The notes under the pieces: generated by a model
What the model was told of the DNA's origin: nothing
The model's input: only the letters and a program-made list of their open reading frames with translations
The model's database searches: none
Program-made: the position numbers and the translations under genes
Assembly (NCBI GenBank): GCA_030280995.1
Contig: JASXTE010000005.1
Coordinates: 19,366,001-19,430,000, forward strand
Direction: 5' to 3'
Length of the DNA stretch: 64,000 bases
Origin: Hemileia vastatrix
Lineage: Eukaryota > Basidiomycota > Pucciniomycetes > Pucciniales > Zaghouaniaceae
Shown here: positions 29,688 to 64,000 of the stretch, piece by piece
How positions within the stretch are numbered: the stretch's first letter is position 1
Layout: every line of letters begins with the position of its first letter

Positions 29688-29887
29688 AGGGGGTATCAAA
29701 GTTAGAAATCTTCCATTTCAAAATACCTCTTTGTTCCACCAAATCAACCATTATTATTTTTTAAACTTAGCCATATTGTGCCCCAAAAACACCTTTTTCC
29801 TGAGAATTAATGTCAAGTTTGTGGCTTTCTATTTGTGTTGTGAAATACCTTTTAAATAATTAAAAATTTCTAACTTTGATACTCCCT
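29688..29887. mobile_element. 200-bp Harbinger-type MITE, copy 2
   Basis: AGGGGGTATCAAAGTTAGAA at the left and TTTCTAACTTTGATACTCCCT at the right, with ATT on both sides (29685-29687 and 29888-29890). It aligns over its full length with 2412-2611 (shared interior text AATCAACCAT-ATTATTTTTTAAA and GCCCCAAAAA). Confidence 0.9.
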
Positions 29888-35906: not shown

Positions 35907-35996
35907 ATTAGGGGGTATCAATGTTCAGGGATTGGCAATTAGGGATCAGGAATTTTTTTTCCTGGGATGAGACATCATTAATTGCGTGAGATTTGT

Positions 35997-36022
35997 ATCC
36001 ACTAGCCCTAGGGCTAGTGGAT
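35997..36022. repeat. Perfect 26-bp subterminal palindrome
   Basis: ATCCACTAGCC followed by CTAG and GGCTAGTGGAT forms an uninterrupted palindrome 87 bp inside the transposase-side end of element A. An equivalent, slightly degraded palindrome lies at 51706-51731 in element B. This conserved position suggests a transposase or Myb-like protein binding site, but that is inference. Confidence 0.75.
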
Positions 36023-36379
36023 AAGGAATCCACAATAATGCATTATCCTGCCTCTTATACCCCAATTTCCATTCCTAATTCCTGATCCCAAATTCATCAC
36101 ATCTGTGATGGATTTTTAAAAAAGTCACATGACTTATAATTTCTGATGCCATCCTTAAGTCTTTCCTCACTCTATGATACTAAATTTTGGTGGCAAACGC
36201 ATAAAAATTTTTCTCATCCTTATGGGTCTCTTCACTCTATGATACTTAAGATTGGTGGCAAACACATAACATTTTTTTCTATCTACACACCCCACCTGCT
36301 CATTTGGTGGTGAATTCCCACTTCCCACTTCCCACTCATCACCTAAACCTTCTACTGACAATAATGAAGCACCACTCTA

Positions 36380-37617: not shown

Positions 37618-37699
37618 ACCCTTTTAATCTTTTGTTTTAATACTCTCCAAATGTCCACTTTGTATACTTTATTCACTTGGCTTGGTACTTTTTTTTGTT

Positions 37700-39055
37700 G
37701 CATATTCATTTTTTTTTGGAATTTATGGTGAATATCTCTTTTTTGGATGGCTCATTGGTTTTCTTTCACCAGCTCAACATGACATCACATATTTTCTGAA
37801 ATTGCATAATTTTTCACTGTTTCTTTTTTTCATTCATCCCTCATATCCTTTTCCTCTTCTCCTCCAACATCCCTCAAACAATTTGGTTTCATTTATTTTC
37901 TCATCTCATCTCTCCAGGTAAGTCATTTTATTTTATTTTTAATTTTTTGATTACTAATTATAATTTTTTTTGTTTTTTTTTGTTTTTTTATTTTTTGTAT
38001 CTAATTTTTTTTAAGTGGTTATTTTTGATTTCAATGGTAAAATTAACCTTTTTTCCCTCTCTCTCTTTACTTTCTTTTTTAGCTCCATCACCCTACTCTT
38101 CATCCCTCCATGGCATGGTCATTATCCCCCCTTTCCCCTATTTCACTTTTTTTTGGCTCCATGTCATTAAAACACATACATTTCACATTCTTTATGCATT
38201 TCACTTACTCCATATTCAATTTCCCGACAATTTCAACATCAATCTTTCTCACTCTATTTTTCCTACTTTTCAATCAAGATAAGTTTCATCTCCTTTTTTC
38301 ATTCCTTTTATTAAAATGTCATACTTAAATATATGTATGACTCTTTTCTGGATAACAGTGAACTTATTAAACTCCTTTTGTTCTCATCTCCATTACCATA
38401 TTTCATTTTTTGTAAAATTTTGAAAACCAGACTCGGAATTAGGGTTAGGTTTATTTAAATCTAATTTTCTTTTTATTGAAAATTCTCCTGAAGGCAACCT
38501 TTCATTTCTCACAAACAGATTTGAATTTGGTTCAGTGGTTGCTGAGATATTGACCATTAAAGTTGAGTCTTTTTTTTCCAAATTTAAATTTTTATTTCAT
38601 TTTTTTATGTAACAAATTAGGGTTGGTTTATTTAAATCACATGTACTTTCACTGAAGATTTTAATAAATCCTATCTCTCATTTCCCACAAAAAGGTTTGA
38701 ATTAGGCTCAGTGGTTGCTTAGATTTTGAACTTTGAAGTTGAGCCTTTTTTTCCAAATTTCACTTATCTTATTTCACATTTTTATATTGCATAATTAGAG
38801 GAAAAGGATTCTGAAACTTTTATCTGATTATTATCTAGGCTTCCATCTCCCTCTTTTTGGACTTTTCATCATCACTGTTCAAGTTTTTGTGTAAACTTGA
38901 AAAGTAGAGTCAGAATTAGGGTTGGGTTTATTTGAATCAACTGCCCTTATAGCTGAAGATAGTTTAAGGTTAAATAAACAAACAAAATTTTGTGAGTTTT
39001 ATTTTTTTGCCAATTTATTTATTTGGTTTTTGACACAAATTTTTTTTGTTCAGAG
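37700..39055 (+). other. Probable spliced 5' leader of the Tet-like gene, element A
   Basis: Pyrimidine-rich DNA with good splice signals: a donor CTCCAGGTAAGTCAT at 37918, an acceptor TTTCTTTTTTAG at 38081, and a second donor position that reads CAAGATAAGT in A (38279) but CAAGGTAAGT in element C. The stretch 38400-38940 has repeats of about 200 bp that each contain TTAGGGTTRGGTTTATTT and TTCAGTGGTTGCTGAGAT-like text. A final acceptor TTTTTTTGTTCAG precedes the ATG at 39062. None of the short open frames reads like protein, so a leader is the better explanation. Confidence 0.4.
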
Positions 39056-39061
39056 AAAAAA

Positions 39062-40175
39062 ATGTCTATTTCATCAGAATCACCTCCTACTTCTCTATCA
39101 TCATTCTATTTATCATCCTTATCATCATTTTCACATTCATCTTCATTTCAATCATCATACAAAATATCAAAAAAAAATTAATGATGATTGAAGTCAGCAA
39201 AATAAAAGAAAATTAAAAAAGAAAATTCATTTGAATCACTTATTTGGCCATATATCAAATATTGAGTACTATAAAACTAGAGTGGATCAAAAAAATTCTT
39301 ATCCAAAAAGTTACCAGAAGATTTAATGTATTTAACCAAATCAGGAGAGGATGAAATTAAAGCAGTTATCAGTGATTCTTTTAAACATCAATTTATTTTG
39401 AAAATAATTCTTTTAATGGTTCAAAAGATGAAACCTTTAATCAACTATCTGATCTCATAATAAAACTATATCGAATGGCTTTGGTTTTCTTACCAATAAG
39501 GAATACAAATTTGTTGGGTGGTATTATGATTGGATTTGGTTGGAGAACAGGATTGGATGAAGGCTATTCTCTTGGTATGTCTGATAATATATGTCATATT
39601 CCTAAAATCATGTTGCTAATTTTATTTTCATAGGCATCTATTCTTTACTTAAAAATTTATCTAAAGCTGAAAAAGATGATGATTTTCGCTTATGGGACAC
39701 CTTACCTTCTTTCAATACTTTTATTGCTCTTCACCTCAAAAAACTCTGCAATAAAGCTTTTGATTTGAATCATAAAATTGCTACCAAAGTTGGAATACCA
39801 AATTGGTGTGACTCCATAGGGGAAGAAATTAGAAACAAATATCTTTTACTTTCAAATGTTATTATTACTCATTCAAGATTCCATAATAATATTCATATCA
39901 ATAGAAATTACACCAATTATCTTAATTTTGTAATTTTCTCATATATCAATCTGATAACTGGTCAACCAACACCATCTCCAGCTAAAATCAAAGGACATGG
40001 CTTATATTATCCAGACCATCAGTGAATGATTGATTTTGGTTTGGGAAATGATGTGATTGAAACAATTTGGAACTCTTCTCATGATCATCACCAAACAACC
40101 AAAGCTCCAACTGGCTTGGAATCTTGTCAAGAGCTCACACATTTCAGATGTTCTTTCAAATCAGTCAAAATTTAA
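39062..40175 (+). pseudogene. Tet/JBP-like 2OG-Fe(II) dioxygenase, copy A, broken
   Basis: The reading starts at ATG 39062 with a Ser-rich N-terminus (SESPPTSLSSFYLSSLSSFS), breaks, and continues as KAVISDSFKHQFIF and ALVFLPIRNTNLLGGIMIGF up to a 59-nt intron (39575-39633, GTATGT...CATAG). The catalytic exon gives LWDTLPSF, KVGIPNWCDS, NNIHINRN where the Fe-binding HxD should be, SYINLITGQP, KIKGHGLYYPDH, then TAG at 40024, and NSSHDHHQTTKAP with the distal His. The HxD aspartate is Asn here and several stops exist, so it is inactive. It documents the full exon order that copy C has lost. Confidence 0.78.
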
Positions 40176-40199
40176 TCCAGCAAATAAACAAGGTAAAAA

Positions 40200-42116
40200 A
40201 ATAAGGTAAGTTTAACAGATATAAAAAAATTTATGTAGATCAAAAAAGTATGTGGATTAGTAGAGTCATCAAATATTTTTAATTTTTTCATAAATTTTTT
40301 ATAAATAACTCTTATATTTCAAATTCCTAAAATAAAGTAATGGGCCAATGACCCTGTGCTGTATAAAAGGTAATCATGATAACATTAAATTGTTTCATTA
40401 GGTTCATCTTGCCTATACCTGTGGAAATTCCCAAACTTAGTTTCTAGACTTGGTCCACATTTTGGCGGGATGAATTTTCATTACTTTAAAACTAGGGATA
40501 TTGATATATATTAGTTGTATATATATTAATATATGTAATTATATTAAATTTTGATTATTTTCACCCCTTACTTCAATCAAATTCAGGGGAGGGTATTGCC
40601 AAATTTTCAAATCTGACATGTGAAATTGATGACTTATAAAATTTTTGGTGATACCCACCCCTTCATTCAACAAAATGCAGGGGAGGGTATTTCCAATTTT
40701 TTAAAACAGATATAGAGTTTTGTTGATTTAGCTGCATTTAGAAAAGTAAATTTAATGATTTGAATTTAAAGAAGAAAAAATGTATGAGTTTTTCAAATTT
40801 TCACAAAAAAAAATCATCTAGGATCAAGACCTTTAAAAAGTCAGCACATATTGTAGACAATCCTATAGTACTAGCTATAGGCCTAGACCAAGGGAGTTGG
40901 AGAAAAACCAGAGAGAAAATCCCCTGTCCCTTTAGAAAAATAGAGTGAGATTTACTTGCTAAAGTAAGTTGGTTCCTGTTTTGCTAAAGCCCCTTTTTAA
41001 CACACTTGACTGCTTGATGAGCCAAGAAAGTAGTCCCCAGATAGACTACCAGACCAAAGAACTGAAATGTAGAACAAAGTCCACACCAGAGACAGCAAAG
41101 ATACTTGATGTAGGCTGCAAATCCACACCAGAGACAGCAATAATACTTGCTATAGCTTGCAAGGCTATAACAGAGAAAACAGTTGCTAAAGTTAAGTTAA
41201 ATGAAGAACTCACTTGCAACAAAAACAGCCAATTGTGGCCAGAAAACAGTGAAAACTGAGTGAGGAACAATGAGATCACCTCCGGATGGTTGTATGATGA
41301 TTAAGGTTTCCCCAAACTGTCTTATTCACTATGTACACACAGACCACTAACTAAGAGCCCATGCGCACCCACCAATCTGGCGCCTGTACCCGCCAAATTG
41401 CATAAAAAAACCTCCTGGAGCGCTCCCCAACCTCCTAAAACAGAGGCGGGCGGGCCGCCCAACGTCGTGGATGCCGCCTGAAGCGGCCCGGCCTCCCTGA
41501 AGCCAGAAAACCAATAAAAACCACTAATCTACTTAGAAAAATTAGCTACAACTACTAAAACCTTTAAAACACGGAATTTCACTATAACAACATTGAGACA
41601 TGAAATATAGAGAAAAATTAGCTCTATCCAATGGTACTAAGCACCTAACCCTAAGACTTAAGGTTAGCCCGTAAAATACGAAAAACAAAATTAAACAGCA
41701 ATCTTTTATAAATGAAAAATGAGGAAATGACCCCTTAAAACTCAGAATATGAAAAATGTCTACAAGACATAAAATATAGAGAAAAACCAGGGCTATCCAA
41801 TGATAGTACCCACATACCCGCAGACCCAATATCCACGAGATAAAACCAGAAAAATACCAAATTCCTTAACAGATGTCAATTAAGACATGCACAAACAGCG
41901 CCAAATCACACAACAAAGGCCCCTGCCAATTTTGGAAGACCACAATATGAAATTATAACCAAAAATAAATAAAACAAAATTAATTTAACCAAACAAACAA
42001 ATAATCTAAAATTTTGCAAAAAAAAGTTTCGAATCTCAGTGATGAGTGTGTGCCAAGGATTGATTGTTAGGTTTAATGCATTCTATCAAGAAAACTTTGT
42101 AAATGAAATTAAAAAA
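40200..42116. other. Element A spacer with a 1.37-kb foreign insert
   Basis: 40380-40520 corresponds to the region at 47070-47279 and 60432-60641 in B and C. 40560-40720 holds two copies of the TIR-like tandem repeat. From about 40725 to 42090 the sequence has no match in B or C. It contains a 46-bp tandem repeat (CCACACCAGAGACAGCAA, 41084-41180), a strikingly G+C-rich patch (41380-41505) and a duplicated block of about 165 bp (CAATGGTA-like, ATATAGAGAAAAA; 41560-41830). It looks like a degraded solo LTR or another non-coding insertion. Text near 40895-40930 (CAAGGGAGTTGGAGAAAAAC, CCTGTCCCTTTA) matches the foldback at 470-520. Confidence 0.5.
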
Positions 42117-43469
42117 CTAGTTATCAAAAATTTTCATTAAGTGTTCAATTTCCTCAATAGATTTATTAGCTTTAACACAATCTCTCAAGAAATCTTTCTT
42201 TTTTGAAACTTCTTCAAGTTGATACTTGAGTTTCATTTGATCCAGTAGGAAATTGTACTCAAGAGCCTTCACCTCTTTCTTTATCTAAAATTTCTTCTCC
42301 TCCAAATCATGTGCCCTCTCATCCCTCTGTAAAGAAAGCTCAAATTTCTTCTCCTCCAAGTCTTGTGCCCTATCATCCCTTCATAAAGTAAGCTCAAATT
42401 TATTCTCCTCTAAGTCTTGTGCCCTATCATCCCTTTGTAAAGAGAGCTTGTATTGTTTTTTTAAAAGTTGAGAGTATCTCTTGCAACTTCAACTTTACCT
42501 AGAGTGAAAAGGAATATTAACAAAAGAAAAGAAAAGATCACTTAATTATTAAGAGGTATGCTATCACTTTCCAGATTCACGTTTATCCAGAAACTCATCA
42601 ATGGAAGAAAAAGGGGTTTGGGAAAAACTATCTCTGTTTTGATTTCTATGACTGTTGAAATTTAAAGTAGTCAATGGTCTTTGCTTTTTTTTGGAGGTAA
42701 AATTTTCCTTTTCATCATTGATGCTAGCTTCAGACTCACTTGCTTGAGGATTGTGGGTTCATTCATTAGCCTTCTTTAAAAAAATAAAACAACTAAACAA
42801 GAAATAAAAACTTACTGGAGTGGGATCATGTTGGTTTATATCACCATAAGGATCTATTGGAAAGCTATCTAGATTTGTTGAATTTAGAACAGGGGAGGCC
42901 TGAATGGAGGAGGAGAATTGTAAAATGTTTCTTTCAACATCATGTTTGGAGATAGCATCTTCACCATCAAACATGTTGGCATGATTAACATCAGCTCTCT
43001 CTCCAAAAATAGCATCCATCTCTTTAAAGTATGGACACAGAGATTCAAGTTTATCATCTATAGATTTTTTGCCCTTACTGATATTGATGTTGGTAATACC
43101 AAAACCAGTAGAAAATGAAAGAGTCTTTTCCTTCTTGTATTTAGATTGGTAATGCTTGAAACTTTCAGAAATATTTTTAGGAAAAAGATGAATCCTTCCC
43201 TTTGTCTTATTTTGTAATTCATTGGCCATTAGAAGATAGCCATTGACTTTTCATGCAGGGGGCTGTCCTACTTTAGTTGCATTCTTAGTACCAAAACAAG
43301 AATCATAATTAGTTTTTACTTTAAGACAGCTGATAAGTATGAGATGATCATCTTTTTGTAGTTGAACAGTCTTTGATTTCTCAGCTGAGCGGGGGGAAGA
43401 GGGAGTAATAGTATTTGAAGAACAACTGGGGGAAGGCTGTCTTTGAGAAGATCTATGATGATGAGGCAT
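42117..43469 (-). pseudogene. Myb/SANT-like protein of Harbinger element A, broken
   Basis: The start ATG at 43469 is preserved (MPHHHRSSQRQPSPSCSS), followed by KTVQLQKDDHLILI, a TGA stop at 43251 within PPA*KVNGY, and then MANELQNKTKGRIHL, YKKEKTLSFSTGFGI, LCPYFKEMDAIFGERADVNH. The coiled-coil exon (42117-42490) has stops inside its repeats. Same three-exon organisation as copy C. Confidence 0.85.
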
Positions 43470-43863
43470 GTTGAGATATTTGAAGATGAAAAGGAGAAGA
43501 AATAAATAGATGAGATGGGGAGGGGTTTTAAATGGATAGAATGAAAAGACAGGATGGTAGTGCACAGAAAGGTAGGGAGGCTGGCACATCAATAAAGTTG
43601 TCCAAGATGTGGTTATGAAAAATTGAGGATAAAAATGTCAGATAGAGGTGAACATTGACATGTAAGAGGTCTAATAACCCAACTATTAGCAAAAGTAATT
43701 TCCAAAAATAATTGAAGTATAATGATTTTTATCCGCAATTAATTTAATTACTGATCCTTCAACATTGGTACCCCCTATTTAATGCATTGGTATATCTATA
43801 TTCTTTCAACTACCTTGAAAAAACCTAGCTCATGAAAAAAGTTAATTTTTTTGGTAATCACCA

Positions 43864-44760: not shown

Positions 44761-45152
44761 AATAGGGGGTATCAATGTTCAGGGATCAGTAATTAAATTA
44801 ATTGCGGATAAAAATCCTTATACCCCAATTATCTTCCGCAATTATTTTTGCTAATAATTGGGTTATTAGACACTTTACGTGTCAATGTTCACCTCTTATC
44901 CGACATTTTTTTACTCAATTTTTCATAACCACATCTTGGAAAACCTTCTGTTATAACCACATCTTGACCTACTTTCTGCCATAACCACATCTTGAACTAC
45001 TCTCTGCATATGCCTTCTACATTGCTGCGCATTCCCATTCTCATCCCATCCACTCAGAATTTCTCCTCATTTCTTCTCTTTGATTCTGCTCCTTTTCATC
45101 TCGCTATCTCATCTGCTCGTTTCTGCTCCTTTTCATCTTCATTTATAATAAC

Positions 45153-46499
45153 ATTCCTCGTCATCCTAGATATTCTCAAAGGCAGCCATCACCCAGTTGT
45201 TCTTCAATTCCCACTACTTCCTCTTTCCCCCGCTCAGCCAAGAAATCAAAGACTGTTCAATTAAAAAAAGATGACCATCTCATTCTTATCAACTGGCTGA
45301 AAACCAAATCTAACTATGATTCTTGTTTTGGTACTGAGTATGCCACTAAAGTAGGATGGCCCCCTGAATCAAATGTTAATGGCTATCTTCTAATGGCAAA
45401 TGAATTATGGAATAAGACCAAGGGAAGGATTGATCTTTTGCCTAAACAGATGTCTGAACAATTCAAGAATTACCAAGCAAAATACAAGAAGGCAAAGGCT
45501 CTTTCATCTTCCACTAGTTTTGGGGTTACCAACAACAATATAACTAAGGGCATAAAATCCATAGATGATAAACTTGAAACTTTATGTCCTTACTTTAAAG
45601 AGATGGATGCAATTTTTGGAGAGCGAGCCGATGTTAATCCTGTAAACATGTTGCATGGTGAAGATCCTATCTCCAAAAATGATGTCGAAGTAAATATTTT
45701 CCCATTGTCTTCCTCCACTCAAGCCTCCCCTCTTCTAAATTCTATGAATCTAGATATCTTTGCTATTGATCCTATTGGCAATTTAACCCAACCCAATCTA
45801 ACTCAGGTCTGTTTTTTTTCTTTTATCTTATCAATACTTTTTTTTATTTACTTAGATTTTCTTATTTCTTAAAAGGCTGATGAAAAAGCCCAGGACCCAC
45901 AATCAACTGAGTCTGAAGCTAGCGACAATGATGAGGATGAAAACGCTATGTTGAACAAAAAGCAAAGGGCTTCAAGTAGTCTAAATTTCCACTCCCAAAG
46001 AAGACAAAAAAGTGATACTTCATCACAAACACCTTTTTCTTTGATGGAACAGTTTTTAGAGAAATGTGATGCTGGTAAGTGATATCATACCTCTTATTAC
46101 TTTACCCTGCTTTTCTTCTACTTTATGTTAATTTTTATTCTCACTCTAGAACAAGTGGAAATTGCTTAAGAGACTCTAAGCTTTGAAAAGAAGAAATATG
46201 AGCTCTCTTTAAGGAGGGATGACAGAGTACAAGATTTGGAAGAGAGGAAGTACGAGCTCTCCTTACGGAAGGATGATCAGCTCCAAGATTTGGAGGAGAA
46301 AAAGTTCGAGTTAACTCTTAGTATTGAAAAATCCAAAAAAGAGGAAAAAACACTCGAGAATCAAAACATAATGGAACAGATGAAGTATAAGCATGATCTC
46401 CAAGAAAGTTCTAAAAAGAAATATTTCTTGATTGAATGCATTAAAGCAAACAAATCTGTTGAAGAAATAGAATGTTTAATGAAATTTTTTGTTGACTAG
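45153..46499 (+). pseudogene. Myb/SANT-like protein of Harbinger element B, broken
   Basis: Exons 45153-45806, 45876-46074 and 46150-46499 follow copy C exactly. The initiator ATG is ATT (45153), exon 1 is otherwise open (KVGWPPESNVNGYLLMANEL, CPYFKEMDAIFGERADVNPV), and exon 3 has TAA after EQVEIA (copy C has AAA). The coiled-coil exon has one 18-residue repeat fewer than copy C. The splice sites GTCTGT...AAAAG and GTAAGT...TCTAG are intact. Confidence 0.88.
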
Positions 46500-46629
46500 T
46501 TTCTTTTATTTCATTCACACTTCATGTGTTCATATTTATTTGTACATAAATTTTACAATTATTTTCTGTATTTCTTGAAATTTCGTATTTAAATGTTAAA
46601 TATTCTTTTTTTAAATAAAATTTTCAAGT

Positions 46630-47060
46630 CTCCTTTGAAAATTTTCCAAACCCCCACCCCTGCATTTTTTTGAAGTAAGGGGTGGGTATCACCAAAATTC
46701 TTTCATGTCAAGAGTCTAGAAAGTCTTATATGAAACTTTGGCGTTACTACCCCCTGCATTTTACTGGTATCCCCAAAATTCTTACAAGTCAAGAATTTCA
46801 CAAGTTTTATAAGAAATTTTGGTAATACTCCCCCCTGCATTTTATTGAAGTAAGGGACGGGTATCACCAAAAAATTTTCACCAAAATATTTACAAGTCAA
46901 AAATTTTACATGTTACATTTGAAAATTTGGCAATACCCCCGCCCCTACATTTTATTGAAGCAAGGGGTGGGTATCACCAAAATTTTTACAAGTCATCAAT
47001 TTTGAATGTCAGATTTGAAAATTTGGCAATACCCCCCCCCCTGCATTTTATTGAAGTAAG
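46630..47060. repeat. Tandem repeat with TIR-like ends, about 105-bp unit, 4-5 copies (element B)
   Basis: Each unit runs from AAGGGGTGGGTATCACCAAAA to AAATTTGGCAATACCCCC then CTGCATTTTATTGAAGT. GGGTATCA at one side and ATACCCCC at the other resemble the element's own terminal GGGGGTATCA, inverted within every unit. It lies between the converging 3' ends of the Myb-like and Tet-like genes. Confidence 0.82.
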
Positions 47061-47069
47061 GGGTGGAAG

Positions 47070-47279
47070 TCATCTAAATTTAATATAATTACATAAATTA
47101 TTAAATAAATATCTAATATATATCAATTTCCCTAGTTTAAAGTAATGACAATTCCTCAAGCCAAAATGCAGATCAAATCTAGAAACAAAAGTTTGGGACT
47201 TTCCACAGGTATAGGCTAGAGGAACCCCATGAAACAAATAAATGTTATCATGATTACCTGTTATACAACACAAGGTCAT
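47070..47279 (-). other. Conserved open frame downstream of the Tet-like gene, possible 3' exon (B)
   Basis: 69 codons without a stop, conserved with 60432-60641 in element C (shared MTLCCITGNHDNIYLFHGVP and LGKLIYIRYLFNNLCNYIK). A GTAATC donor and CTCTAG acceptor can be drawn inside, so it may be spliced onto the dioxygenase gene or be part of its 3' UTR. No domain recognised. Confidence 0.4.
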
Positions 47280-47424
47280 TGGCCCATTACTTTAGTTGAG
47301 GAAATTGATATATAGAAAATATTTATTAAAAATTTATGAAAAAATATAAAATTTTTGATGACAACTCTAATCCCCATACTTTTTGGATCTAGATAAAGTT
47401 TTTTTAAATTTATTAACTTTACCT

Positions 47425-48600
47425 TCTTTCTTTACCTTGTTGATTCTTTGAATCAAATTTTGACTTATTTGAAAAGAACAATCAAAATGAGTGAAATCTT
47501 GACAGGATTCCAAACCAGGAGGAGCTTTGGTTTTTTGATGATTATCCTGAGAAGAATTCCAAATAGTTTTGATGATACCATTTCCCAAAGAAAAATCAAT
47601 GATGCACTTGTGGTCTGGAAAATAATAACCATGTCCTTTGATTTTAGCTGGAGATGGTATTGGTTGGCCAGTAATTGGATTGATATATGAGAATATACCA
47701 AAAGTAAGAAAATTGGCATCATTGGTATCGGTGTGAATTTTATTGTGAAATCCAGAATGAGTGATAATGACATTTGAAAATAAAAGATATTCGTGGCTGA
47801 TATTTTCCCATTCGGAGTCTCACCAATTCGGTATTCCAACTTTGGTTGCAACTTCATGATTTTTTTCAAATGCCTTATTACAGAGCTTTTTGAGTCAAAG
47901 AGCAAGAAAAGAATTAAAGGAAGGTAGAGTGTCCCATAAGCGAAAATCTTCATCTTTTTGTGCTTTAGTGATATTCTTGACCAACAAATATATGCCTATA
48001 TAAATGAAATAAGTGAAATGATATTAAGAATGGAAAAAAAATTATTAGACATACCAAGAGAATATCCTTTAACAAAACCTGGTCTCCAACCAAATCCAAT
48101 CATGATACCACCCAACAAATTCTTATTCCTTATAGGTAACCAAACCAAAGCCATTTGATAAAGAGTTATGATAAGATTGGATAGTTGATTAAAAGCTTCA
48201 TCTTTTACACCATTGAATGAATGAACTTCAAAAATGAATTGAGGCTTAAAAGTATTGCTGATAACTGCAACAACTGGATCATCTCCAAATCCGGTTAGAT
48301 ATTTGATATCTTCTGGTAATTTTTTTGGATATTGATTTTTTTATCTACTTTAGTTTTATGAAAAAAAATGTTTGGGATATGATGAAAATAACTTTCACAG
48401 AGAATTTTTTTTTTTCAGATATCTTTTCTTCTGATGAGACTGATTATCTTTAAATTTTTTTGATGATTTAGATGATGATTGTATGGAAGTTGATTTCGAA
48501 GAAGATAATAGAGATGATAAAGAAGATAAAGATGAAGATGAGAGAGAAGTAAGGGGTGAATCTGAAGAAGAAGATATTTTTTTGATCTGAAAAAAAATTT
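47425..48600 (-). pseudogene. Tet/JBP-like 2OG-Fe(II) dioxygenase, copy B, broken
   Basis: On the minus strand a Ser-rich N-terminus (SSSDSPLTSLSSSSLSSLSS near 48580) precedes a frame break, then FKPQFIFEVHSFNGVKDEAF, ALVWLPIRNKNLLGGIMIGF and a 59-nt intron (47996-48054). The catalytic exon keeps HTD as the Fe-binding HxD (NKIHTDTNDANFLTFGIFSY), KIKGHGYYFPDH and the distal His in NSSQDNHQKTKAPPG. Two stops (after FLAL and after IPNW) kill it. The rest of the catalytic core is conserved, so the loss looks recent relative to copy A. Confidence 0.8.
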
Positions 48601-48639
48601 AAATGTCAATAAAATTTCAACTCAATTTTTTTTTTAAAA

Positions 48640-48772
48640 AAAAATTCTCACCTAATAATAAAAAAAGCTGTTTTTTTATTTGAAAAATAAAATTGGAAAA
48701 ACAAAAAACAAAAAACAAAAAACAAAAAACAAAAAATCAGTAAACATTTTTCCACAAAAAAAAATAATTTAT

Positions 48773-48814
<42 letters not shown>

Positions 48815-48852
48815 GGTTTTATTTTTAAAAAACAAAATAAAAGCAAAATCCT

Positions 48853-48893
<41 letters not shown>

Positions 48894-49290
48894 TCAAAAA
48901 AAAAAAAAAAATTTCTGTAAAAATTAAATCAAAAAAAATTAAAAAATTAAAAGTGAACCTGAAGATTGGTTATTAAAAACCTTCTCACAAGACCCTGAAA
49001 AAAAAAAACAAAACAAAAACAAAACAAAAACAAAAACAAAAAAAAAAAAAACAAAAAAAAAAAAAAATTAGTAAAATCAAAAAATCAAAATCAAAAAAAA
49101 AATTTATATAAAAAAAAAAATCAGAAAAATTAGTTACAAGAAAAATTAAAAATTAAATTATAAACCTTTTTTGATTTGTAAATAAGAGGGACAGTCCTTA
49201 ACAGAAAGATTTTTTTTTTTTTTTTTCTATAATACTGCCAAAAAAATTAAAAAATTAATCAAATTTACAAATAAAAATTTGTTAGTATAT
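48640..49290. repeat. Poly-A/poly-T-rich low-complexity block, element B only
   Basis: Long A runs (e.g. 48773-48809, 48861-48888) and AAAAAC repeats replace the leader region present in A and C. No coding potential. Confidence 0.8.
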
Positions 49291-49945
49291 TTATTTGAAA
49301 GTAGGTAACCCCTCTTTATCTCCCATAAATGTCCCCTTTTCCCCTCCTTTATTTATTTGAAATCCCCTTACAAATCCCTCCCTCCTTGCCTCAAAAGTCC
49401 TCTCAAATCCTCTCCTTGCCTGCCTCAAAAACCCCCTGCTTAATTGTCTCAAAACCCCCCCAAATTCCCCCCATTTACCCTTCTTTATATGTCCCAACCC
49501 CCCCCTCTTTAGCCGCCTCAAACCCCCCCCATTCTCCTCTCTTTAGCCGCCTCAAACCCCCCCTTCCCCCCCCTTCCACTCACCTTACCTCCTCTTCTAC
49601 CCCCCCCCCTCCTTGTTAATGAACAATTGTTAGCAATCATTCGTTAAGAAAAAGGGGGGTAGAGGAGGAGGTAAGGGAGTGGGTGGGGGGGGGAAGGGGG
49701 GGTTTTGAGGCGGCTAAAGAGAGGGGAAGGGGGGGTTTGAGGTGGCTAAAGAGAGGGGAAGGGGGGTTTGAGGCGGCTAAAGAGAGGGGAAGGGGGGCTT
49801 GAGGGACATAAAGAGAGGAGAAGGGGGGAGTCTTGAAGCGCCTAAAAAGAGGGGAAGGGGGGATTTGAGGCAGCTAAAAAGGGGGAAAAAGGGGGAAAAA
49901 GGGGGGCCTTGAGGATGATAAAGAGAGGTGAAGGAGAAAAAAAAA
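49291..49945. repeat. Inverted purine/pyrimidine minisatellite, element B only
   Basis: About seven copies of a 31-bp purine-rich unit (GGGGAAGGGGGGTTTGAGGC then GGCTAAAGAGA) run from about 49690 to 49930. The reverse complement of the same unit (CCGCCTCAAACCCCCCC) runs from about 49320 to 49600, degenerating outwards. The two arrays meet at a near-palindromic AT-rich centre at 49614-49648, flanked by TACCTCCTCTTCTACC and its inverse. This is a very long potential hairpin or triplex-forming tract. Confidence 0.85.
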
Positions 49946-49992
49946 AAAAAAAATTAGTTTACCCTAGAACAAAAAATAAATGAAGCACTTAC

Positions 49993-50035
<43 letters not shown>

Positions 50036-50125
50036 AAGATGCAACAACTCAAAATACAAAACGAAGTGAATAAAGTACACAAAGAGGACATTTAGAAAGT
50101 ATGAAAACATAAAAATTAAAAAAAA

Positions 50126-50755
50126 TTAAAAGTGTTGCAAAGTGAAAGGTTGGAGAGTAATTGGCATTATAATGGAGCATATGCCGGTTGATTGAATGAT
50201 TTGTGAATCAAGGGAGGGAAGTGCCAGTGGTGGTTCAGGATCCTCTTCTTTATAAAGATCATTCCACTCATCCTTTAAATCAGCTAGAATATTGTGGAGT
50301 ATTACACAAGTCAAGATCCAATGATTCACAGTTTTGATCTCCAATTTTTTTTTAAAAATTGGATTCTGAGCTCCTAAAGACTAGAAAATCAGCTCTTTAA
50401 AATACCTATAGCATGTTCAATTTGTACTCTTGATTGTGCAAGGTGATAAATAAAGGCAGTTTTGGGGTCATTTTCTGAAGTTGCACCACAGAAAGCAGGT
50501 ATAATGTACTTTCCACTTGCATATGCTGAGTCTGCAAGGAGGTACTGAGATTTGTCAAAGTATGAGTCAGGGGATTGAGAAATCCTCATTCTTTGGAAGA
50601 TGGAAAGAGTCATGACATGATCCAGGGCAGCCACTATGAAAAGCAATCAATTTTTTATTGACATTGCATACAAGTTGAACAGCAATAGAGTATCTAGAAA
50701 GAAGATAAAAAGTTAGATTGTGAAAGATGAGAACTTGGAGAAGATTTTGAAGAAA

Positions 50756-50801
<46 letters not shown>

Positions 50802-51427
50802 AATCAAAATAATGGTTGCCATCATGAGCATGCTTTTGACTCAAAGGGATGGTTGTGCCATCAACAAAACCTATACAGCCAGGGAAACCTTCAGCTTGCA
50901 TTACTTGAGAGGATTCAAGTCGCTGTTCTGGAGTTGGCCAAGCAAGAGTTTGAGACTTGAGGGAAAGGATAGCAATCATACAGCACTTGGTGTATAATAT
51001 CACAGTACCATATCCTATGTTAAAGAGATTATCTAAACATCTTATGGCAGCACCATTTCCATTTGAGCCAAAGCGACATAGAGCAACAGCAAGTTGGATG
51101 GCAGGATTACACTATTTGTTATGAGAATTGTTATGGAAGATAGGATGTTCAGAAATGAGTTGATAAAGTTTGAAGAAAGAATCAGGAGAAGTTCTAAAAA
51201 GTTGTGTGAAGTTTAAATGAGGAATGTTGAGAATGGAGGCCAGATCATATCAGGGATCATGATAAAGATTTGGCCCCCCCCTGGTGACAATGTAACGCTT
51301 TTTGGAAAGAAAACACATATAAGCTAAAGCATCTTCCAAATCAGAGTCAGATTTATGGTAAAGAACTAAAAGAAAAGTGATAGCATTCATTGTTGAGTGA
51401 AGTAGCTTCCTAGTAGAGAGGTGTTTC
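50126..51427 (-). pseudogene. Harbinger DDE transposase, copy B, broken
   Basis: The reading starts at MKHLSTRKLL (51427). Stops follow YHDP (CGA or AGA to TGA) and NNSHNK (CAG to TAG beside CGT to TGT). The first Asp is intact in GFVDGTTIPLSQK. A T run at 50759-50799 on the plus strand expands a Lys stretch at the conserved intron junction (YFDCKKK). The second Asp (LADSAYASGKYIIPAF) and the Glu (RVQIEHAIGILK) remain, followed by TGA. The C-terminal tail (LADLKDEWNDLYKEEDPEPP) ends at 50126. Confidence 0.88.
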
Positions 51428-51705
51428 ATTGTTGTCAGTGGAAGAGATATGTGATGAGGGAAGTGGGAAGTGGAAATTCACTGCCAAATGTGCAGTTGAG
51501 GTGTGTAGATAGAAAAAAAAAACTTAAGTGTTTGCCACCAAAATTAAGTAGCATAGAGTGAGGAAAGACTTAAGGATAGCATCAGCCATTATGAGTCATG
51601 TGACTTTCTTGCAAATCCATCATGGATGTGATGAGTTGGGGATCAGGAATTAGGAATGGAAATTGGGGTATAAGAGGCAGGATAATGCATGATTGTGGAT
51701 TTCTT

Positions 51706-51731
51706 ATCCACTAGCCCCAGAGCTAGTGGAT
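51706..51731. repeat. Subterminal palindrome, element B
   Basis: ATCCACTAGC and GCTAGTGGAT flank a CCCAGA centre, 92 bp inside the transposase-side end. It is the counterpart of the perfect palindrome at 35997-36022 in element A. Confidence 0.7.
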
Positions 51732-51826
51732 AATAAGAATCTTCCGCAATTAATAGTGTCTGATCCCAGGAAAAAAAAAATTCCTGATCCCTAATTGCGG
51801 ATCCCTGAACATTGATACCCCCTAAT

Positions 51827-55903: not shown

Positions 55904-56083
55904 ATGGACGCCCTTGCCCATCAACAACTTCCTGGTCTACACTTCCCTCCTTTCTCTTCCCTCCCTCTCTCACTCCCTCACTCACTCTGCCTTCCTTCCA
56001 CTCCTTAACCTTCAGATAAACCTGAACTCTTCAAACCTCCCGGTAATCCCTCTTGGGGTTGGGGTAATCCTAAATGTCCTCTC

Positions 56084-56130
<47 letters not shown>

Positions 56131-58117: not shown

Positions 58118-58471
58118 AATAGGGGGTATCAATGTTGACCGATCCGCAATTAAATTAATTGCGGAAAATAATCTGCATACCCCAATTATCTTCTGCAATT
58201 ATTTTTGCTAATAATTGGGTTATTAGACACTTTACGTGTCAATGTTCACCTCTTATCTGACATTTTTATCCTCAATATTTGATAACCACATCTTGGACAA
58301 CTTTCTGGATATCCCAGACTTCTACCTTGCTGCGCACTTCCATTCTCATCCCATCCTGTTCATTCTATCCGCTCAGAATTTCTCTCCATTTCATCTATTT
58401 GATTCTTCTCCTTTTCATCTCGCTATCTCATCTGCTTGTTTCTGCTCCTTTTCATCTTCATTTATAATAAC

Positions 58472-59874
58472 ATGCCTCGTCATCCTAGATCTTCTCAAAG
58501 GCAGCCATCACCCAGTTGTTCTTCAATTCCCACTACTTCCTCTTTCCCCCGCTCAGCCAAGAAATCAAAGACTGTTCAATTAAAAAAAGATGATCATCTC
58601 ATTCTTATCAACTGGCTGAAAACCAAATCTAACTATGATTCTTGTTTTGGTACTGAGTATGCCACTAAAGTAGGACGGCCCCCCACATCAAAAGTTAATG
58701 GCTATCTTCTAATGGCAAATGAATTACGCAATAAGACCAAGGGAAGGATTGATCTTTTGCCTAAACAGATGTCTGAACGCTTCAAGCATTATCGAGCAAA
58801 ATACAAGAAGGCAAAGGCTCTTTCATCTTCCACTGGTTTTGGGGTTACTGACATTGAACTAACTAAGGGTATAAAATCCATAGACAATAAACTTGATTCT
58901 TTATGTCCTTACTTTAAAGAGATGGATGCAATTTTTGGAGAGCGAGCCAATGTTAATCCTGTAAACATGTTGGATGGAGAAGATCCTATCTCCAAACATG
59001 ATGTCGAAGCAAATCTTTTCCCATCCTCTTCCTCCACTCAAGCCTCCCCTCTTCTAAATTCTACAAATCTAGATAGCTTTGCTATTGATCCTATTGGCAA
59101 TTTAACCCAACCCAATCTAACTCAGGTCTGTTTTTTTTCTTTTATCTTATCAATTCTATTTTTTTATTTACTTATCTTTTTCTTATTTCTTAAAAGGCTG
59201 ATGAACAAACCCAGGATCCTCAATCAACTGAGTCTGAAGCTAGTGACAATGATGAGGAGGAAAATGCTACGTTGAACAAAAAGAGAACGGCTTCAACTAG
59301 TCTAAATTTCCTCTCCCAAAGAAGACGAAAAAGTGATACTTCCTCACAAACACCTTTTTCTTCAATGGAACAGTTTTTAGAGAAACGTGATGCTGGTAAG
59401 TGATATCATACCTCTTATTACTTTACTCTGCTTTTCTTCTACTTTATGTTAATTTTTATTCTCACTCTAGAACAAGTGGAAATTGCTAAAGAGACACTGA
59501 GCTTTGAAAAGAAGAAATACGAGCTCTCTTTAAGGAGGGATGACAGAGTACAAGATTTGGAAGAGAGGAAGTATGAGCTCTCCTTACGGAAGGATGATCG
59601 GATCCAAGATTTGGAGGAGAAGAAGTTTAAGCTCTCTTTACAGAAGGATGGTAGGGCCCAAGATTTGGAGGAGAAGAAGTTTGAGTTAACTCTTAGTATT
59701 GAAAAATCCAAAAATAAGGAAAAAACACTCGAGCATCAAAACTTAATGGAACAGATGAAGTATAAGCATGATCTCCAAGAAAGTTCTAAAAAGAAAGATT
59801 TCTTGATCGAATGCATTAAAGCAAACAAATCTGTTGAAGAAATAGAACGTTTAATGAAATTTTTTGTTGACTAG
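58472..59874 (+). CDS. Myb/SANT-like DNA-binding accessory protein of Harbinger element C, 418 aa, intact
   Basis: Exons 58472-59125, 59197-59395 and 59471-59874 (introns GTCTGT...AAAAG and GTAAGT...TCTAG) total 1257 bases with no internal stop. In PIF/Harbinger elements this partner binds subterminal DNA and brings the transposase to the ends. Residues 1-35 are Ser/Pro-rich. About 35-125 is the Myb/SANT-like region (KKDDHLILINWLKTKSNYDS, KVNGYLLMANELRNKTKGRI, SERFKHYRAKYKKAKAL) with GFGVT and CPYFKEMDAIFGER behind it. An acidic stretch with a basic SQRRRKS (possible nuclear signal) follows in exon 2. Exon 3 is a coiled coil with three to four 18-residue repeats (KYELSLRKDDRIQDLEEK). The start is the MPRHPRSSQ ATG, conserved in copy A; an earlier in-frame ATG at 58436 adds only hydrophobic leader-like residues. 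Confidence 0.85.
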
Positions 59875-60009
59875 TTTCTTTTATTTCTTTCACACTTCAT
59901 GTGTTCATATTTAGTTGTACATAAATTTTACAATTATTTTCTGTATTTCTTGAAATATCGTATTTTAATGTTAAATATTCTTTTTTTAAATAAAATTTTC
60001 AAGTCTCCT

Positions 60010-60430
60010 TTGAAAATTTGACAATCCCCCACCCCCTGGATTTTTTTGAAGTAAGGGGTGGGTATTACAAAAATTCTTTCATGTCATGAATCTTGAAAGT
60101 TTTATATGAAAATTTGGCTTTACTACCCCCTGCATTTTACCGGTATCCTAAAAATTCTTACATGTCAAGAATTTCACAAGTCTTATAAAAAATTTTGGCA
60201 CAACCCCCCATGGATTTTATTGAAGTAAGGGACGGGTATCACAAAAATATTTACAAGTCAAAAAAATTCTATATCTGTTTAAAAAAATTGGCAATACTTT
60301 CCCCTGCATTTTATTGAAGCAAGGGGTGGGTATCACCAAAATTTTTCTAAGTCATCAATTTCACATGTCAGATTTGAAAATTTGGCAATACCCCCCCCCC
60401 CCCTGCATTTTATTGAAGTAAGGGGTGGAA
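60010..60430. repeat. Tandem repeat with TIR-like ends, about 105-bp unit, 4-5 copies (element C)
   Basis: Same units and position as 46630-47060 in B (GTAAGGGGTGGGTATTAC, AAATTTGGCAATACCCCCC), between convergent gene ends. Confidence 0.82.
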
Positions 60431-60431
60431 G

Positions 60432-60641
60432 TCATCTAAATTTAATATAATTACATAAATTATTAAATAAATATCTAATATATATCAATTTCCCTAGTTT
60501 AAAGTAATGACAATCCCTCAAGCCAAAATGCAGACCAAGTAGAGAAACATAAGTTTGGGACTTTCTACAGGTATAGGAAAGAGGAACCCCATGAAACAAA
60601 TAAATGTTATCATGATTACCTGTTATACAACACAAGGTCAA
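60432..60641 (-). other. Conserved open frame downstream of the Tet-like gene, possible 3' exon (C)
   Basis: 69 codons, open, similar to 47070-47279 throughout with a few substitutions. Possible terminal exon or 3' UTR of the dioxygenase gene. Confidence 0.4.
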
Positions 60642-60775
60642 TGGCTCATCACATTATTTGAGAAAATTGATATATAAAAAATATTTATTAAAAATTTATG
60701 AAAAAATATAAAATTTTCGATGACAACTCTAATCCCCATACTTTTTGGATCTAGATAAAGTTTTTTTAAATCAAA

Positions 60776-61357
60776 TAACTTTACCTTCTTTCTTTACCTT
60801 ATTGATTCTTTGTATCAACTTATTACTGATTTGAAATGAGCAACTGAAATGAGTGAAATCTTGACAGGATTTCAAACCAGGAGGAGCTTTGGTCGTTTGA
60901 TGATTATCCTTAGAAGAATTCCAAATAGTTTTGATGATACCATTTCCCAAACCAAAATCAATGATGCACCGGTGGTCTGGAAAATATAAACCATGTCCTT
61001 TGATTTTAGCTGGAGATGGTATTGGGTGGCCAGTTATCAGATTGATATATGAGAATATTCCAAAAGTAAGAAAATTGGCATCATTCCTATCGATATGAAT
61101 CCTATTGTGGAATCCAGAATGAGTGATAATAACATTAGAAAATAAAAGATATTCGTGGCTGATATCTTCCCATTCGGAGTCACACCAATTTGGTATTCCA
61201 ACTTTGGTTGCAAGTTCATGATTTTTTTCAAATGCTTTATTACAGAGCTTGTTGAGTTGAAAAGCAAGAAAAGAGTCAAAGGAAGGTAGAGTGTCCCATA
61301 AGCAAAAATCTTCATCTTTTTGAGCTTTAGTGATATTCTTGACCAACGAATATATGC
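60776..61357 (-). pseudogene. Tet/JBP-like 2OG-Fe(II) dioxygenase, copy C: catalytic exon intact, 5' exon deleted
   Basis: An open exon of about 190 codons starts after the acceptor AATTATATAG (61358). Counting from the Met at 61346: LWDTLPSFDSF (17-27), KVGIPNWCDSEWEDI (48-62), the Fe-binding motif FHNRIHIDRND with H84 and D86, FGIFSYINLITG (95-106), KIKGHGLYFPDH (114-125), IIDFGLGNGIIKTIWNSSKD (128-147) and the distal H149 in NHQTT, then SCSFQIS. HxD, GHG...F and the W-(6)-H-x-T order are those of fungal Tet-like 2OG-Fe(II) oxygenases that oxidise 5-methylcytosine. The Ser-rich/LPIRN 5' exon seen in A and B is deleted (about 0.79 kb), so a full protein is unlikely. Substrate is inferred from family. 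Confidence 0.78.
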
Positions 61358-62560
61358 CTATATAATTGAAATGCCTAGATAATAATCATATAAGAGTTTC
61401 AGAATCCTTATCCTCTAAATATGCAATATAAAAATGTGAAATAAGACAAGTGAAATTTGGAAAAAAGGCTCAACTTCAAAGGTCAAAATCTCAGCAACCA
61501 CTGAACCTAATTCAAACCTGTTTGTGGAAAATGAAAGATTTGCTTTAGTAGAATCTTCAGTTAAAGGACATGCGATTTAAATAAACCTAACCCTAATTTG
61601 TTACATAAAAAAATGAAATAAAAATTTAAATTGGGAAAAAAAAGGCTCAACTTTAACGGTCAATATCTCAGCAACCACTGAATCAAATTCAAATCTGTTT
61701 GCAGGAAATGAAAGGTAGCCTTCAGGAGAATCTTCAGTAAAAAGAACATTAGATTTGAATAAACCTAACCCTAATTACGAGTCTGATTTTTAAAATTTTA
61801 CAAAAACTTGAAAAGTGGTAATGAAGATGAGATCAAAAGGAGGTTTATAAGTTCACTGTTATCCAGATAAGAGTCATACATATATTTAAGTATGAAGTTT
61901 TCATAAAAGGAATGAGATATCATATAGGCATGAAAAAAAGGAGATGAAACTTACCTTGATTGAAAAGTAGGAAAAATAGATTGAGAAAGATTGATGTTGG
62001 AATTGTGGGGAAATTGAATATGGAGTAAGTGAAATGCATAAAGAATGTGCAATGTATGTGTTTCAATGAAATGTAGCCAAAAAAAAGTGAAATAAGGGAA
62101 AGGGGGGATAATGACAATGCCAAGGAGAGATGAAGAGTAGGGTGATGGAGCTAAAAAATAAAGTAAAGAGGGAGAAAAAAAAAAGGTTAATTATACCATT
62201 GAAATCCAAAATAACCACTTACAAAAAAAATTTAGATAAAAAAAATAAAATAAACAGAAAAAAACAAAAAAAATTATAATTAGTAATCAAAAAATCAAAA
62301 AAAAAAGAATAAAATGACTTACCTGGAGAGATGAGATGACAAAATGAATGAAACCAAATTGTTTGAGGGATGTTGGAGGAGAATAGGAAAAGGATATGAG
62401 GGATGAATGAAAAAAAAAAAATCACTGACAAAATATGCAATTTCAGAAAATATGCGATTTCATGTTGAGCTGGTGAAAGAAAACCAATGAGCCATCCAAA
62501 AAAAAGATATTCACTGTAAATTCAAAAAAAAAAAATGAATATGCAACAAACCAAAATACA
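61358..62560 (-). other. Leader region of the Tet-like gene, element C
   Basis: Inverted counterpart of 37700-38860 in A. It has the 200-bp repeats with TCAGCAACCACTGAA (61485 and 61670), a good donor (CAAGGTAAGT, read on the minus strand at about 61953), an acceptor (TTTTTAG, near 62155) and an upstream donor (CCAGGTAAGT, near 62322). Short open frames (e.g. 61920-62123) are low-complexity and hydrophobic and are not counted as genes. Confidence 0.4.
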
Positions 62561-62624
62561 AAACCAAGTGATTAAAGTACACAAAGAGGACGTTTGGAAA
62601 GTATGAAAACATAAAAATTAAAAA

Positions 62625-63935
62625 TTAAAAGGGTGAAGAGAAATGTTGGAGAGTAATTGGCATGATAATGGGGCTTATGCCGGTTGATTGAATGATTTGT
62701 GAATCAAGGGAGGGGAGTGCCAGTGGTGGTTCAGGATCCTCTTCTTCATAAAGATCATTCCACTCATCCTTTAAATCAGCTAGAATATTGTGGAGTATTA
62801 CGCAAGTCAAGATCCAATGATTTGCAGTTTTGATCTTCAATTTTTTTTGAAATTGGATTCTGAGCTCCCAAAGACTAGAAAATTATCCCTTTAAAATACC
62901 TATAGCATGTTCAATTTGTACTCTTGATTGTGCAAGGTGATAATTAAATTTAGTTTTGGGGTCATTTTCTGAATTTGCACCACAGAAAGCAGGTATAATG
63001 TACTTTCCACTTGCATATGCTGAGTCTGCAAGGAGGTACTGAGATTCATCAAAGTATGAGTCAGGGGATTGAGAAATCCTCATTCTTTGGAAGACGGAAG
63101 AGTCATGACATGATCCAGGGCAGCCACTGTGAAAAGCAATAAATTTTTTATTGACATCGCATACAAGTTGAACAGCAATAGAGTATCTAGAAAGAAGATA
63201 AAAAGTTAGATTGTGAAAGATGAGAACTTGGAGGAGATTTTGAAGAAACCTTTTTTTGCGATCAAAATAATGGTTGCCATCATGAGCAGGCTTTTGACTC
63301 AAAGGGATGGTTGTGCCATCAACAAAACCTATACAGCCAGGGAAACCTTCATCTTGCATTACTTGAGAGGATTCAAGTCGCTGTTCTGGAGTTGGCCAAG
63401 CAAGAGTTTGAGACTTGAGGGAAAGGATAGCAATCATACAGCGCTTGGTGTATAATATCACGGTACCATATCCTATGTTAAAGAGATTATCCAAACGTCT
63501 TACGGCAGCACCATTTCCATTTGAGCCAAAGCGACATAGAGCAACAGCAAGTTGGATGGCAGGATTACGCTGTTTGTTATGAGAATTGTTATGGAAGATA
63601 GGATGATTGGAGATGAGTTGATAAAGTTTGAAGAAAGAATCGGGAGAAGTTCTAAAAAGTTGTGTGAAGTTTAAATGAGGAATGTTGAGAATAGAGGCCA
63701 GATCATATTGGTGATCATGATAAAGATTTGGCCCCCTGGTGATGATGTAACGCTTTTTGGAAAGAAAACACATATAAGCTAAAGCATCTTCCAAATCAGA
63801 GTCAGATTTATAGTAAAGAACTAAAAGAAAAGTGATAGCATTCATTGTTGAGTGAAGTAGCTTCCTAGTAGAGAGGTGTTTCATTGTTGCTGGTGGAAGG
63901 GTTATGTGATGAGGGAAGTGGGAATTCACCGCCAA
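62625..63935 (-). pseudogene. Harbinger DDE transposase, copy C, one visible stop codon
   Basis: 350 codons are open from 63935 to 62886. The first catalytic Asp is D206 in GFVDGTTIPL, the second D304 in LLADSAYASGKYI and the Glu E342 in RVQIEHAIGILKG. CPGSCHDSSVF (272-282) and CRFGSNGNGAAVRRL are further family marks. A 63-nt in-frame intron (63187-63249, GTTTCT...TTCTAG) probably removes residues 229-249. A TAA (62883-62885) stands where copy A has AGA, right after ILKG. The same frame then continues for 86 codons (FSSLWELRIQF, LADLKDEWNDLYEEEDPEPP) to 62625. The start may be M18 (MKHLSTRKLL), as in A and B. Without the stop it would look complete. Confidence 0.85.
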
Positions 63936-64000
63936 ATGTGCAGTTGGGGTGTGTAGATAGAAAAAAAACTTAAGTGTTCGCCACCAAAATTAAGTAGCAT

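What the first reader, a model, noticed from the sequence alone, without database searches (positions are those of the whole stretch)
60776..61357. A PIF/Harbinger transposon family that carries a Tet/JBP-like dioxygenase gene
All three Harbinger copies have a third gene besides transposase and Myb-like partner. Its catalytic exon shows HxD (H84, D86 in copy C), GHGLYFPDH, IWNSSKDNHQTT with the distal His, and SFQIS, which match fungal Tet-like 2OG-Fe(II) oxygenases. The known strong association of this enzyme family with fungal transposons is with KDZ-type elements. I do not know of a described three-gene Harbinger with it. An element that carries a 5mC oxidase could keep its own copies from being silenced.
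Basis: partly seen in the sequence, partly recalled or inferred. Interest (0 to 1): 0.88.

Follow-up and report, generated by a model that had tools for sequence, protein, structure and literature searches.

The report
Harbinger transposons carrying a Tet-like gene
A jumping-gene family in a large, probably fungal genome carries a gene for a likely DNA-demethylating enzyme beside its own two genes; such elements were described in rust fungi in 2025, and this one adds signs that the enzyme gene is swapped between families and partly lost from many copies.

Summary
All three Harbinger copies match Pfam PF20515, Tet-like 2OG-Fe(II) oxygenases (copy C: E 2.7e-29). Of nine gene-bearing TIR pairs fetched without regard to this gene, eight hold it inside one TIR pair with matching AAT/ATT flanks. 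The full gene has two exons, and open copies of it occur. Copy C is a derivative: exon 1 is deleted, exon 2 has no Met and ends early.

The combination is known: Kojima 2025 (PMC12730594) describes Tet genes in Harbinger of Puccinia and Austropuccinia ("PHISTA": TA duplications, no Myb/SANT gene). Here the duplication looks 3 bp long and the third gene is weakly Myb/SANT-like, so I call it a variant.

Added here: a Tet cassette has changed partners between Harbinger elements of one genome; copies are CpG-hypermutated, C>T 0.110 at TCG against 0.0022 at non-CpG, so 5mC was probably present and long-term protection failed; copies without exon 1 are common (4 of 8 TIR-sampled); divergence between lineages shows purifying selection (exon-2 pN/pS 0.16-0.44).

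Enzyme activity and self-protection are inferred.

The parts
58121..64000 (.). Harbinger copy C, 5' TIR at 58121-58132; the other end lies beyond the window
   Evidence: TIR match; beyond the window end the genome reads N
58472..59874 (+). copy C: Myb/SANT-like + coiled-coil partner gene, three exons (58472-59125, 59197-59395, 59471-59874)
   Evidence: open frames; weak Myb_DNA-bind_4 hit; splice sites read by eye, no transcript evidence
60771..61357 (-). copy C: exon 2 (catalytic exon) of the Tet-like oxygenase; exon 1 is absent in this copy
   Evidence: PF20515 E 2.7e-29, profile 46-211 of 211; exon 1 absent
62883..63884 (-). copy C: Harbinger DDE transposase, with an intron read through in frame; the frame stops after GILKG
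   Evidence: DDE_Tnp_4 E 1.8e-18; frame; start codon placed by eye
35910..43776 (.). Harbinger copy A, old and broken, ATT/ATT flanks
36253..37361 (+). copy A: transposase (broken)
39305..40160 (+). copy A: Tet-like oxygenase exon 1 + exon 2 (broken)
   Evidence: PF20515 E 1.2e-13 on 39606-40025
42126..43469 (-). copy A: Myb-like/coiled-coil gene (broken)
44764..51823 (.). Harbinger copy B, AAT/AAT flanks
45153..46496 (+). copy B: Myb-like/coiled-coil gene
47367..48340 (-). copy B: Tet-like oxygenase exons 1 and 2 with a 59-nt intron; exon 2 has stops
   Evidence: PF20515 E 1.4e-16 on 47367-47819
50392..51543 (-). copy B: transposase (broken)
2412..2611 (.). short non-autonomous element with the same termini, AAT/AAT flanks
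29688..29887 (.). short non-autonomous element with the same termini, ATT/ATT flanks

Best explanation
This is a large, mosaic group of PIF/Harbinger DNA transposons in a genome that is probably a rust fungus. Its full form (about 7.2 kb) has three genes: a DDE transposase and, in the same direction, a two-exon Tet-like 2OG-Fe(II) oxygenase; a Myb/SANT-like coiled-coil gene faces them. SHOWN by sequence: family membership, single TIR pair, matching 3-bp flanks, open oxygenase frames in some copies, purifying selection between lineages, CpG hypermutation of copies, an oxygenase cassette that changed partner between Harbinger elements, and common derivatives that lack oxygenase exon 1. INFERRED: the enzyme oxidises 5-methylcytosine at CpG in element DNA, giving active elements a window of expression or transposition before silencing; because the enzyme can act in trans, derivatives that no longer encode it spread as well, and most copies still end up methylated and mutated.
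For: PF20515 in all three window copies, and E 4.1e-38 over profile 11-211 for the L065 protein with its two exons joined. Three genes in one TIR pair with matching flanks: L009, L010, L012, L013, L014, L015, L018, L019 and A, B. Seven copies with both oxygenase exons free of stops over the matched stretches, found by matching neighbouring coordinates in the 150-row lists; two of them (L064, L065) were read in full. Between lineages pN/pS of exon 2 is 0.16-0.44 in the 7 pairs compared, bootstrap upper bounds at most 0.54. HxD, GHG and distal-His motifs are kept in most of 40 sequences. CpG C>T: TCG 0.110, other CpG 0.058, non-CpG 0.0022 (30 loci), so methylated substrate is likely. L063 shares transposase and Myb gene with L065 (84-88% aa, pS 0.12-0.28), but its oxygenase exon 2 is only 58% identical (pS 0.74).
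Against: No expression, methylation map or enzyme assay. Both AlphaFold models are poor (mean pLDDT 38.2 and 35.5), so there is no fold support. No TET structure found by sequence in the PDB. Inside the exon-1-less class exon 2 drifts almost neutrally: 54 nonsynonymous, 27 synonymous and 3 stop variants over 35 sequences, with about 2.3-2.6:1 expected, and dN/dS 0.66 for C against L013. HxD has become HxN in 5 of 40 sequences. L016, with transposase and Myb gene open over the stretches compared, has no oxygenase, and its CpG ratio (0.38) is no lower than that of copies with the gene. The window as a whole is also CpG-poor (0.24), so depletion is not special to this family. None of the 16 elements compared has every compared part open.
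Confidence: 0.6

Rival explanations
1. The family is a plain member of the published PHISTA group in a host not yet sampled; its TA duplication and lack of Myb/SANT are only a matter of how flanks and weak domains were read.
For: Flanks with AWT next to A...T also read TA|GGGGG...CCCCC|TA, so a TA call is possible; the Myb hits stay under the Pfam cut-off where scores are shown. Gene content otherwise fits Kojima's text.
Against: The three flanking bases agree on both sides in 12 of 14 innermost pairs, 15 of 18; with a TA duplication the variable base should agree in about half. Kojima states that none of the third proteins of his families has a Myb/SANT domain.
Confidence: 0.4
2. Passenger gene: a captured oxygenase kept by hitch-hiking, without benefit to the element.
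For: Near-neutral drift inside the exon-1-less class; 4 of 8 TIR-sampled copies with exon 2 lack exon 1; L016 lacks the gene.
Against: Purifying selection between lineages, as strong as or stronger than on the transposase in most pairs (exception L062-L063: 0.44 against 0.38 and 0.30); metal-binding motifs kept in most copies; gene kept in diverged families (L062, L063).
Confidence: 0.2
3. The oxygenase acts on something else than 5mC (for example 6mA, thymine or RNA), or regulates host genes.
For: CcTET also oxidises 6mA, and Kojima does not exclude another activity for the PU type.
Against: The CpG mutation pattern points to 5mC as the modified base in these copies.
Confidence: 0.15
4. Nesting artefact: the oxygenase belongs to another element inserted in Harbinger.
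For: None found; a second TIR pair around the gene was not searched for systematically.
Against: Same position and direction in 8 of 9 TIR-sampled gene-bearing copies, in A, B and C, and in the diverged families L062 and L063.
Confidence: 0.01

Closest known systems
TET+ Harbinger / PHISTA families of Puccinia spp. and Austropuccinia psidii (Kojima 2025, PMC12730594; seen: abstract, Introduction, Results parts 1-2 of 3, Discussion part 1 of 2, figure legends, passages; not seen: figures, Table S1, supplements)
   Same: Harbinger-type DDE transposase, a TET/JBP gene and a third gene inside one TIR pair; gene exchange between elements
   Different: matching 3-bp AAT/ATT flanks instead of TA; third protein weakly Myb/SANT-like, which Kojima says his lack; another genome; exchange seen here between Harbinger elements of one genome
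KDZ transposons (Kyakuja, Dileera, Zisupton) with TET/JBP genes (known here from Kojima's text and recall; Iyer 2014 not held)
   Same: DNA transposon with a TET/JBP gene
   Different: unrelated transposase, 7-8 bp duplications
Canonical PIF/Harbinger and Nuwa (transposase plus Myb/SANT gene, 3-bp duplications; as described in Kojima's text)
   Same: DDE_Tnp_4 transposase, 3-bp flanks, Myb/SANT-like partner
   Different: extra Tet-like gene; duplication AWT rather than TWA (TWA recalled)
CcTET, NgTET, human TET2, CMD1 (named in Kojima's text)
   Same: Tet-like family assignment, HxD...H
   Different: no match to them among PDB chains by sequence

Membership tests
Tet-like 2OG-Fe(II) oxygenase (PF20515) | profile match above curated cut-off | tested here: met
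   150 of 150 scored genome hits over the cut-off
Tet-like 2OG-Fe(II) oxygenase (PF20515) | HxD...H metal triad | tested here: met
   read; lost in some copies, HxN in 5 of 40
Tet-like 2OG-Fe(II) oxygenase (PF20515) | double-stranded beta-helix fold | tested here: inconclusive
   model pLDDT 35.5, no fold search made
Tet-like 2OG-Fe(II) oxygenase (PF20515) | oxidation of 5mC | not testable with these tools
   needs an assay
PIF/Harbinger | DDE_Tnp_4 transposase | tested here: met
PIF/Harbinger | TIRs and 3-bp duplication | tested here: met
   TIR 32-41 bp at 80% identity in 13 elements; 12 of 14 innermost pairs with matching flanks; 1555 short elements flanked AAT/AAT or ATT/ATT against 0 for the backward control, discordant count not obtained; no empty site seen
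PIF/Harbinger | Myb/SANT partner protein | tested here: inconclusive
   Myb_DNA-bind_4 below cut-off in the first member, hit in 7 of 9 members, best E 5.4e-4; also below cut-off in L062, P0001 and P0003; model pLDDT 38.2
PHISTA (Kojima 2025) | TA dinucleotide duplication | tested here: not met
   flanks match over AWT, 3 bp; a TA reading of the same flanks is possible
PHISTA (Kojima 2025) | TET/JBP gene plus a third gene | tested here: met
PHISTA (Kojima 2025) | transposase groups with the Puccinia PHISTA transposases | not tested
KDZ | KDZ transposase | tested here: not met
   transposase is DDE_Tnp_4

The most novel reading that the evidence does not exclude
The Tet gene is a tradeable anti-silencing cassette and a shared good. 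Harbinger elements of one genome swap it among themselves, the enzyme works in trans on CpG-methylated copies, and derivatives that have lost exon 1 spread on enzyme made by others, so the genome records a cheater-producer contest over demethylation.
Probability: 0.3. Interest if true: 0.7.

Novelty: new variant of a known kind. Interest (0 to 1): 0.48.

Why it matters
It gives a high-copy natural system in which transposons with and without a probable 5mC-oxidase gene sit side by side in one genome, with CpG mutation as a record of methylation. That makes a standing question testable: does a transposon-borne Tet enzyme delay silencing, in cis or in trans? It also indicates that the enzyme gene changes partners even within one superfamily.

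Tried and rejected
Host name: not found. Genome size (747.6 Mb) fits a rust fungus; flow-cytometry sizes quoted for Hemileia vastatrix (733.5-796.8 Mb, passages of PMC6472787) fit too, but nothing here identifies the host. KDZ origin: rejected. Nesting: see rivals. Fold comparison: both models too poor to search. The first protein search with exon 2 alone found nothing; alignments found 11 Myb-gene and 2 oxygenase relatives. LTR pairs in the window as a control for CpG mutation: none recognised among the repeats, so it is not known whether elements with the oxygenase mutate less than others. For L065 against L062 the synonymous distance of exon 2 (0.63) is near that of the transposase (0.65-0.72), so exchange is not proven for L062; L063 is the firm case, though its 5' TIR lies outside the stretch fetched. 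Genome-wide count of discordant flanks: not completed. Iyer 2014: not held. Paper searches bearing on this combination.

Full report
What is there. The window lies in a 747.6-Mb genome of 791 contigs. The finding sits in the third of three Harbinger copies. The neighbour genes are a DDE_Tnp_4 transposase and, facing it, a gene whose only recurring Pfam hit is the Myb/SANT-like domain, weak and below threshold where scores are shown, followed by a coiled-coil part.

One element, not a chance neighbourhood. From the 100 TIR places that one search lists I chose 12 stretches, most by the spacing of a forward and a reverse TIR, and fetched them with the extension of copy C. Nine of the 12 hold the transposase; eight of these nine also hold oxygenase exon 2, and four hold exon 1 (L009, L012, L014, L018). 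The other three (L011, L017, L020) hold none of the genes. All eight have matching AAT/AAT or ATT/ATT flanks. Over all innermost pairs, 12 of 14 agree; adding the element at 2412, L062, L064 and L065 gives 15 of 18 (misses: L008, L016, L065). For short elements of about 200 bp the pattern AAT-element-AAT, which on the other strand is ATT-element-ATT, occurs 756 + 799 times, 0 for the backward control; the discordant count did not complete, so this alone does not prove the length of the duplication.

The gene. In the full class the oxygenase has a Ser-rich, basic N-terminal exon, a 59-nt intron and the catalytic exon (no transcript evidence). L064 and L065 have both exons open; L065 joined across the intron gives 396 aa with E 4.1e-38 to PF20515. 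Matching neighbouring coordinates in the 150-row lists gives 7 copies with both exons free of stops over the matched stretches. None of the 16 elements compared has every compared part open: L064 has a stop in the Myb gene, L065 a damaged transposase. The transposase was compared only up to GILKG.

Copy C is a derivative. C, L010, L013, L015 and L019 lack exon 1, that is 4 of the 8 TIR-sampled copies with exon 2, and exon 2 of copy C has no Met. In the 30 loci nearest to copy C's exon 2 (L022-L051, chosen by that similarity) exon 1 is found in none, and in 25 of 30 the transposase match stops at residue 235-241 about 1.25 kb before exon 2, as in L019, which lacks the transposase C-terminal half. 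These loci are 0.990 identical at the median pair. Of the 150 exon-2 hits scored (14,631 first-look candidates), 14 have a stop by my count. That openness reflects youth, not selection: within the class variants run 54 nonsynonymous to 27 synonymous with 3 stops (35 sequences), near the 2.3-2.6:1 expected; ranking by protein similarity biases against amino-acid change. The five copies not ranked so give 36:21.

Selection between lineages. Exon 2 pN/pS runs 0.16 to 0.44 over seven pairs, exon 1 0.19 to 0.48 (L064-L065 exon 1 has too few changes to judge). In most pairs this is as low as or lower than for the transposase; L062-L063 is an exception (0.44 against 0.38 and 0.30). Against L062 the oxygenase exon 2 of copy C is 79% identical in protein, against 44% for the Myb gene and 50-70% for the transposase. 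The gene was therefore kept functional in lineages that propagated. Results the other way: A against L014, two decaying copies, 0.93; C against L013, within the class, 0.66.

Exchange of the cassette. L062 is a second three-gene family with other termini (AGGGGGTGTCAG), AAT/AAT flanks and an oxygenase frame of 390 aa that reads through the intron position in frame; its transposase has a stop. L063 has the transposase and Myb gene of copy C's family (84-88% aa to L065, pS 0.12-0.28), but its oxygenase exon 2 is only 58% identical (pS 0.74) and exon 1 66% (pS 0.56). So the oxygenase of L063, or that of copy C's line, came from another element. L063 is the extended locus L055; seven others of L052-L061 group with it in the oxygenase tree, and L053 with L060 form a separate branch. 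All ten match copy C's exon at 52-59%; the coiled-coil neighbour was within reach in four of the ten, one of them a weak match.

Methylation record. In 30 copies of the exon-1-less class, C>T (or G>A) differences from the majority base are 0.110 at TCG, 0.058 at other CpG and 0.0022 elsewhere. CpG observed/expected is 0.10-0.22 in A, B, L009, L014 and L018 and 0.30-0.41 in the other eight elements measured, L016 without oxygenase included (0.38); the whole window has 0.24. This fits deamination of 5mC with the TCG bias that Kojima's text reports for Pucciniomycotina; a survey reports DNMT1 and DNMT5 in all 12 Pucciniomycotina genomes it examined (passages of PMC12210899). The substrate of a Tet enzyme was therefore probably present on these copies, and the enzyme did not protect them in the long run. 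There is no comparison with elements that never had the gene.

Known work. Kojima 2025 (PMC12730594) reports fifteen TET+ Harbinger families in six rust species, proposes escape from methylation silencing, and describes transfer of the gene between superfamilies. His PHISTA group has TA duplications and third proteins without Myb/SANT. This family differs on both points as far as tested, with the caveats that a TA reading of the flanks is possible, that the Myb match is weak, and that his figures and supplement were not available.

Verdict. A real three-gene Harbinger with a Tet-like oxygenase, a variant of a kind described shortly before. Its added value lies in the cassette swap between Harbinger elements, the loss of exon 1 in many copies, and the CpG record. 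Self-protection by 5mC oxidation stays the likeliest role but is inferred.

Noticed in passing
L065 element positions 4660-5139; window about 60300-60770: A non-coding block 3' of the oxygenase is 85-86% identical between L065 and L062 or A, whose oxygenase exon-2 synonymous sites differ by 40-63%. Exchange in pieces or constraint; unexplained.
   Followed up: partly
L016 (C2:3958000-3964371): Copy with transposase and Myb gene open over the stretches compared, but with about 1.7 kb of unrelated sequence with internal repeats where the oxygenase would be; its flanks do not agree (AAT/ATT).
   Followed up: partly
window 4231-9601: Region of many overlapping direct and inverted repeats of about 120-1030 bp at about 70-90% identity, satellite-like.
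   Followed up: no
L062 (C121:39676700-39685400): Second three-gene Harbinger family with other termini; many open frames of 325-399 aa in the PF20515 list may belong to it, not checked.
   Followed up: partly
window 2412-2611 and 29688-29887: Short elements with the same termini; 1555 of similar length with AAT/AAT or ATT/ATT flanks in the genome.
   Followed up: partly
just beyond window position 64000: The genome sequence after the window end is withheld (N), so copy C cannot be followed to its end.
   Followed up: no
window 52800-56411: Open frames between copies B and C that are not part of Harbinger, possibly a host gene.
   Followed up: no
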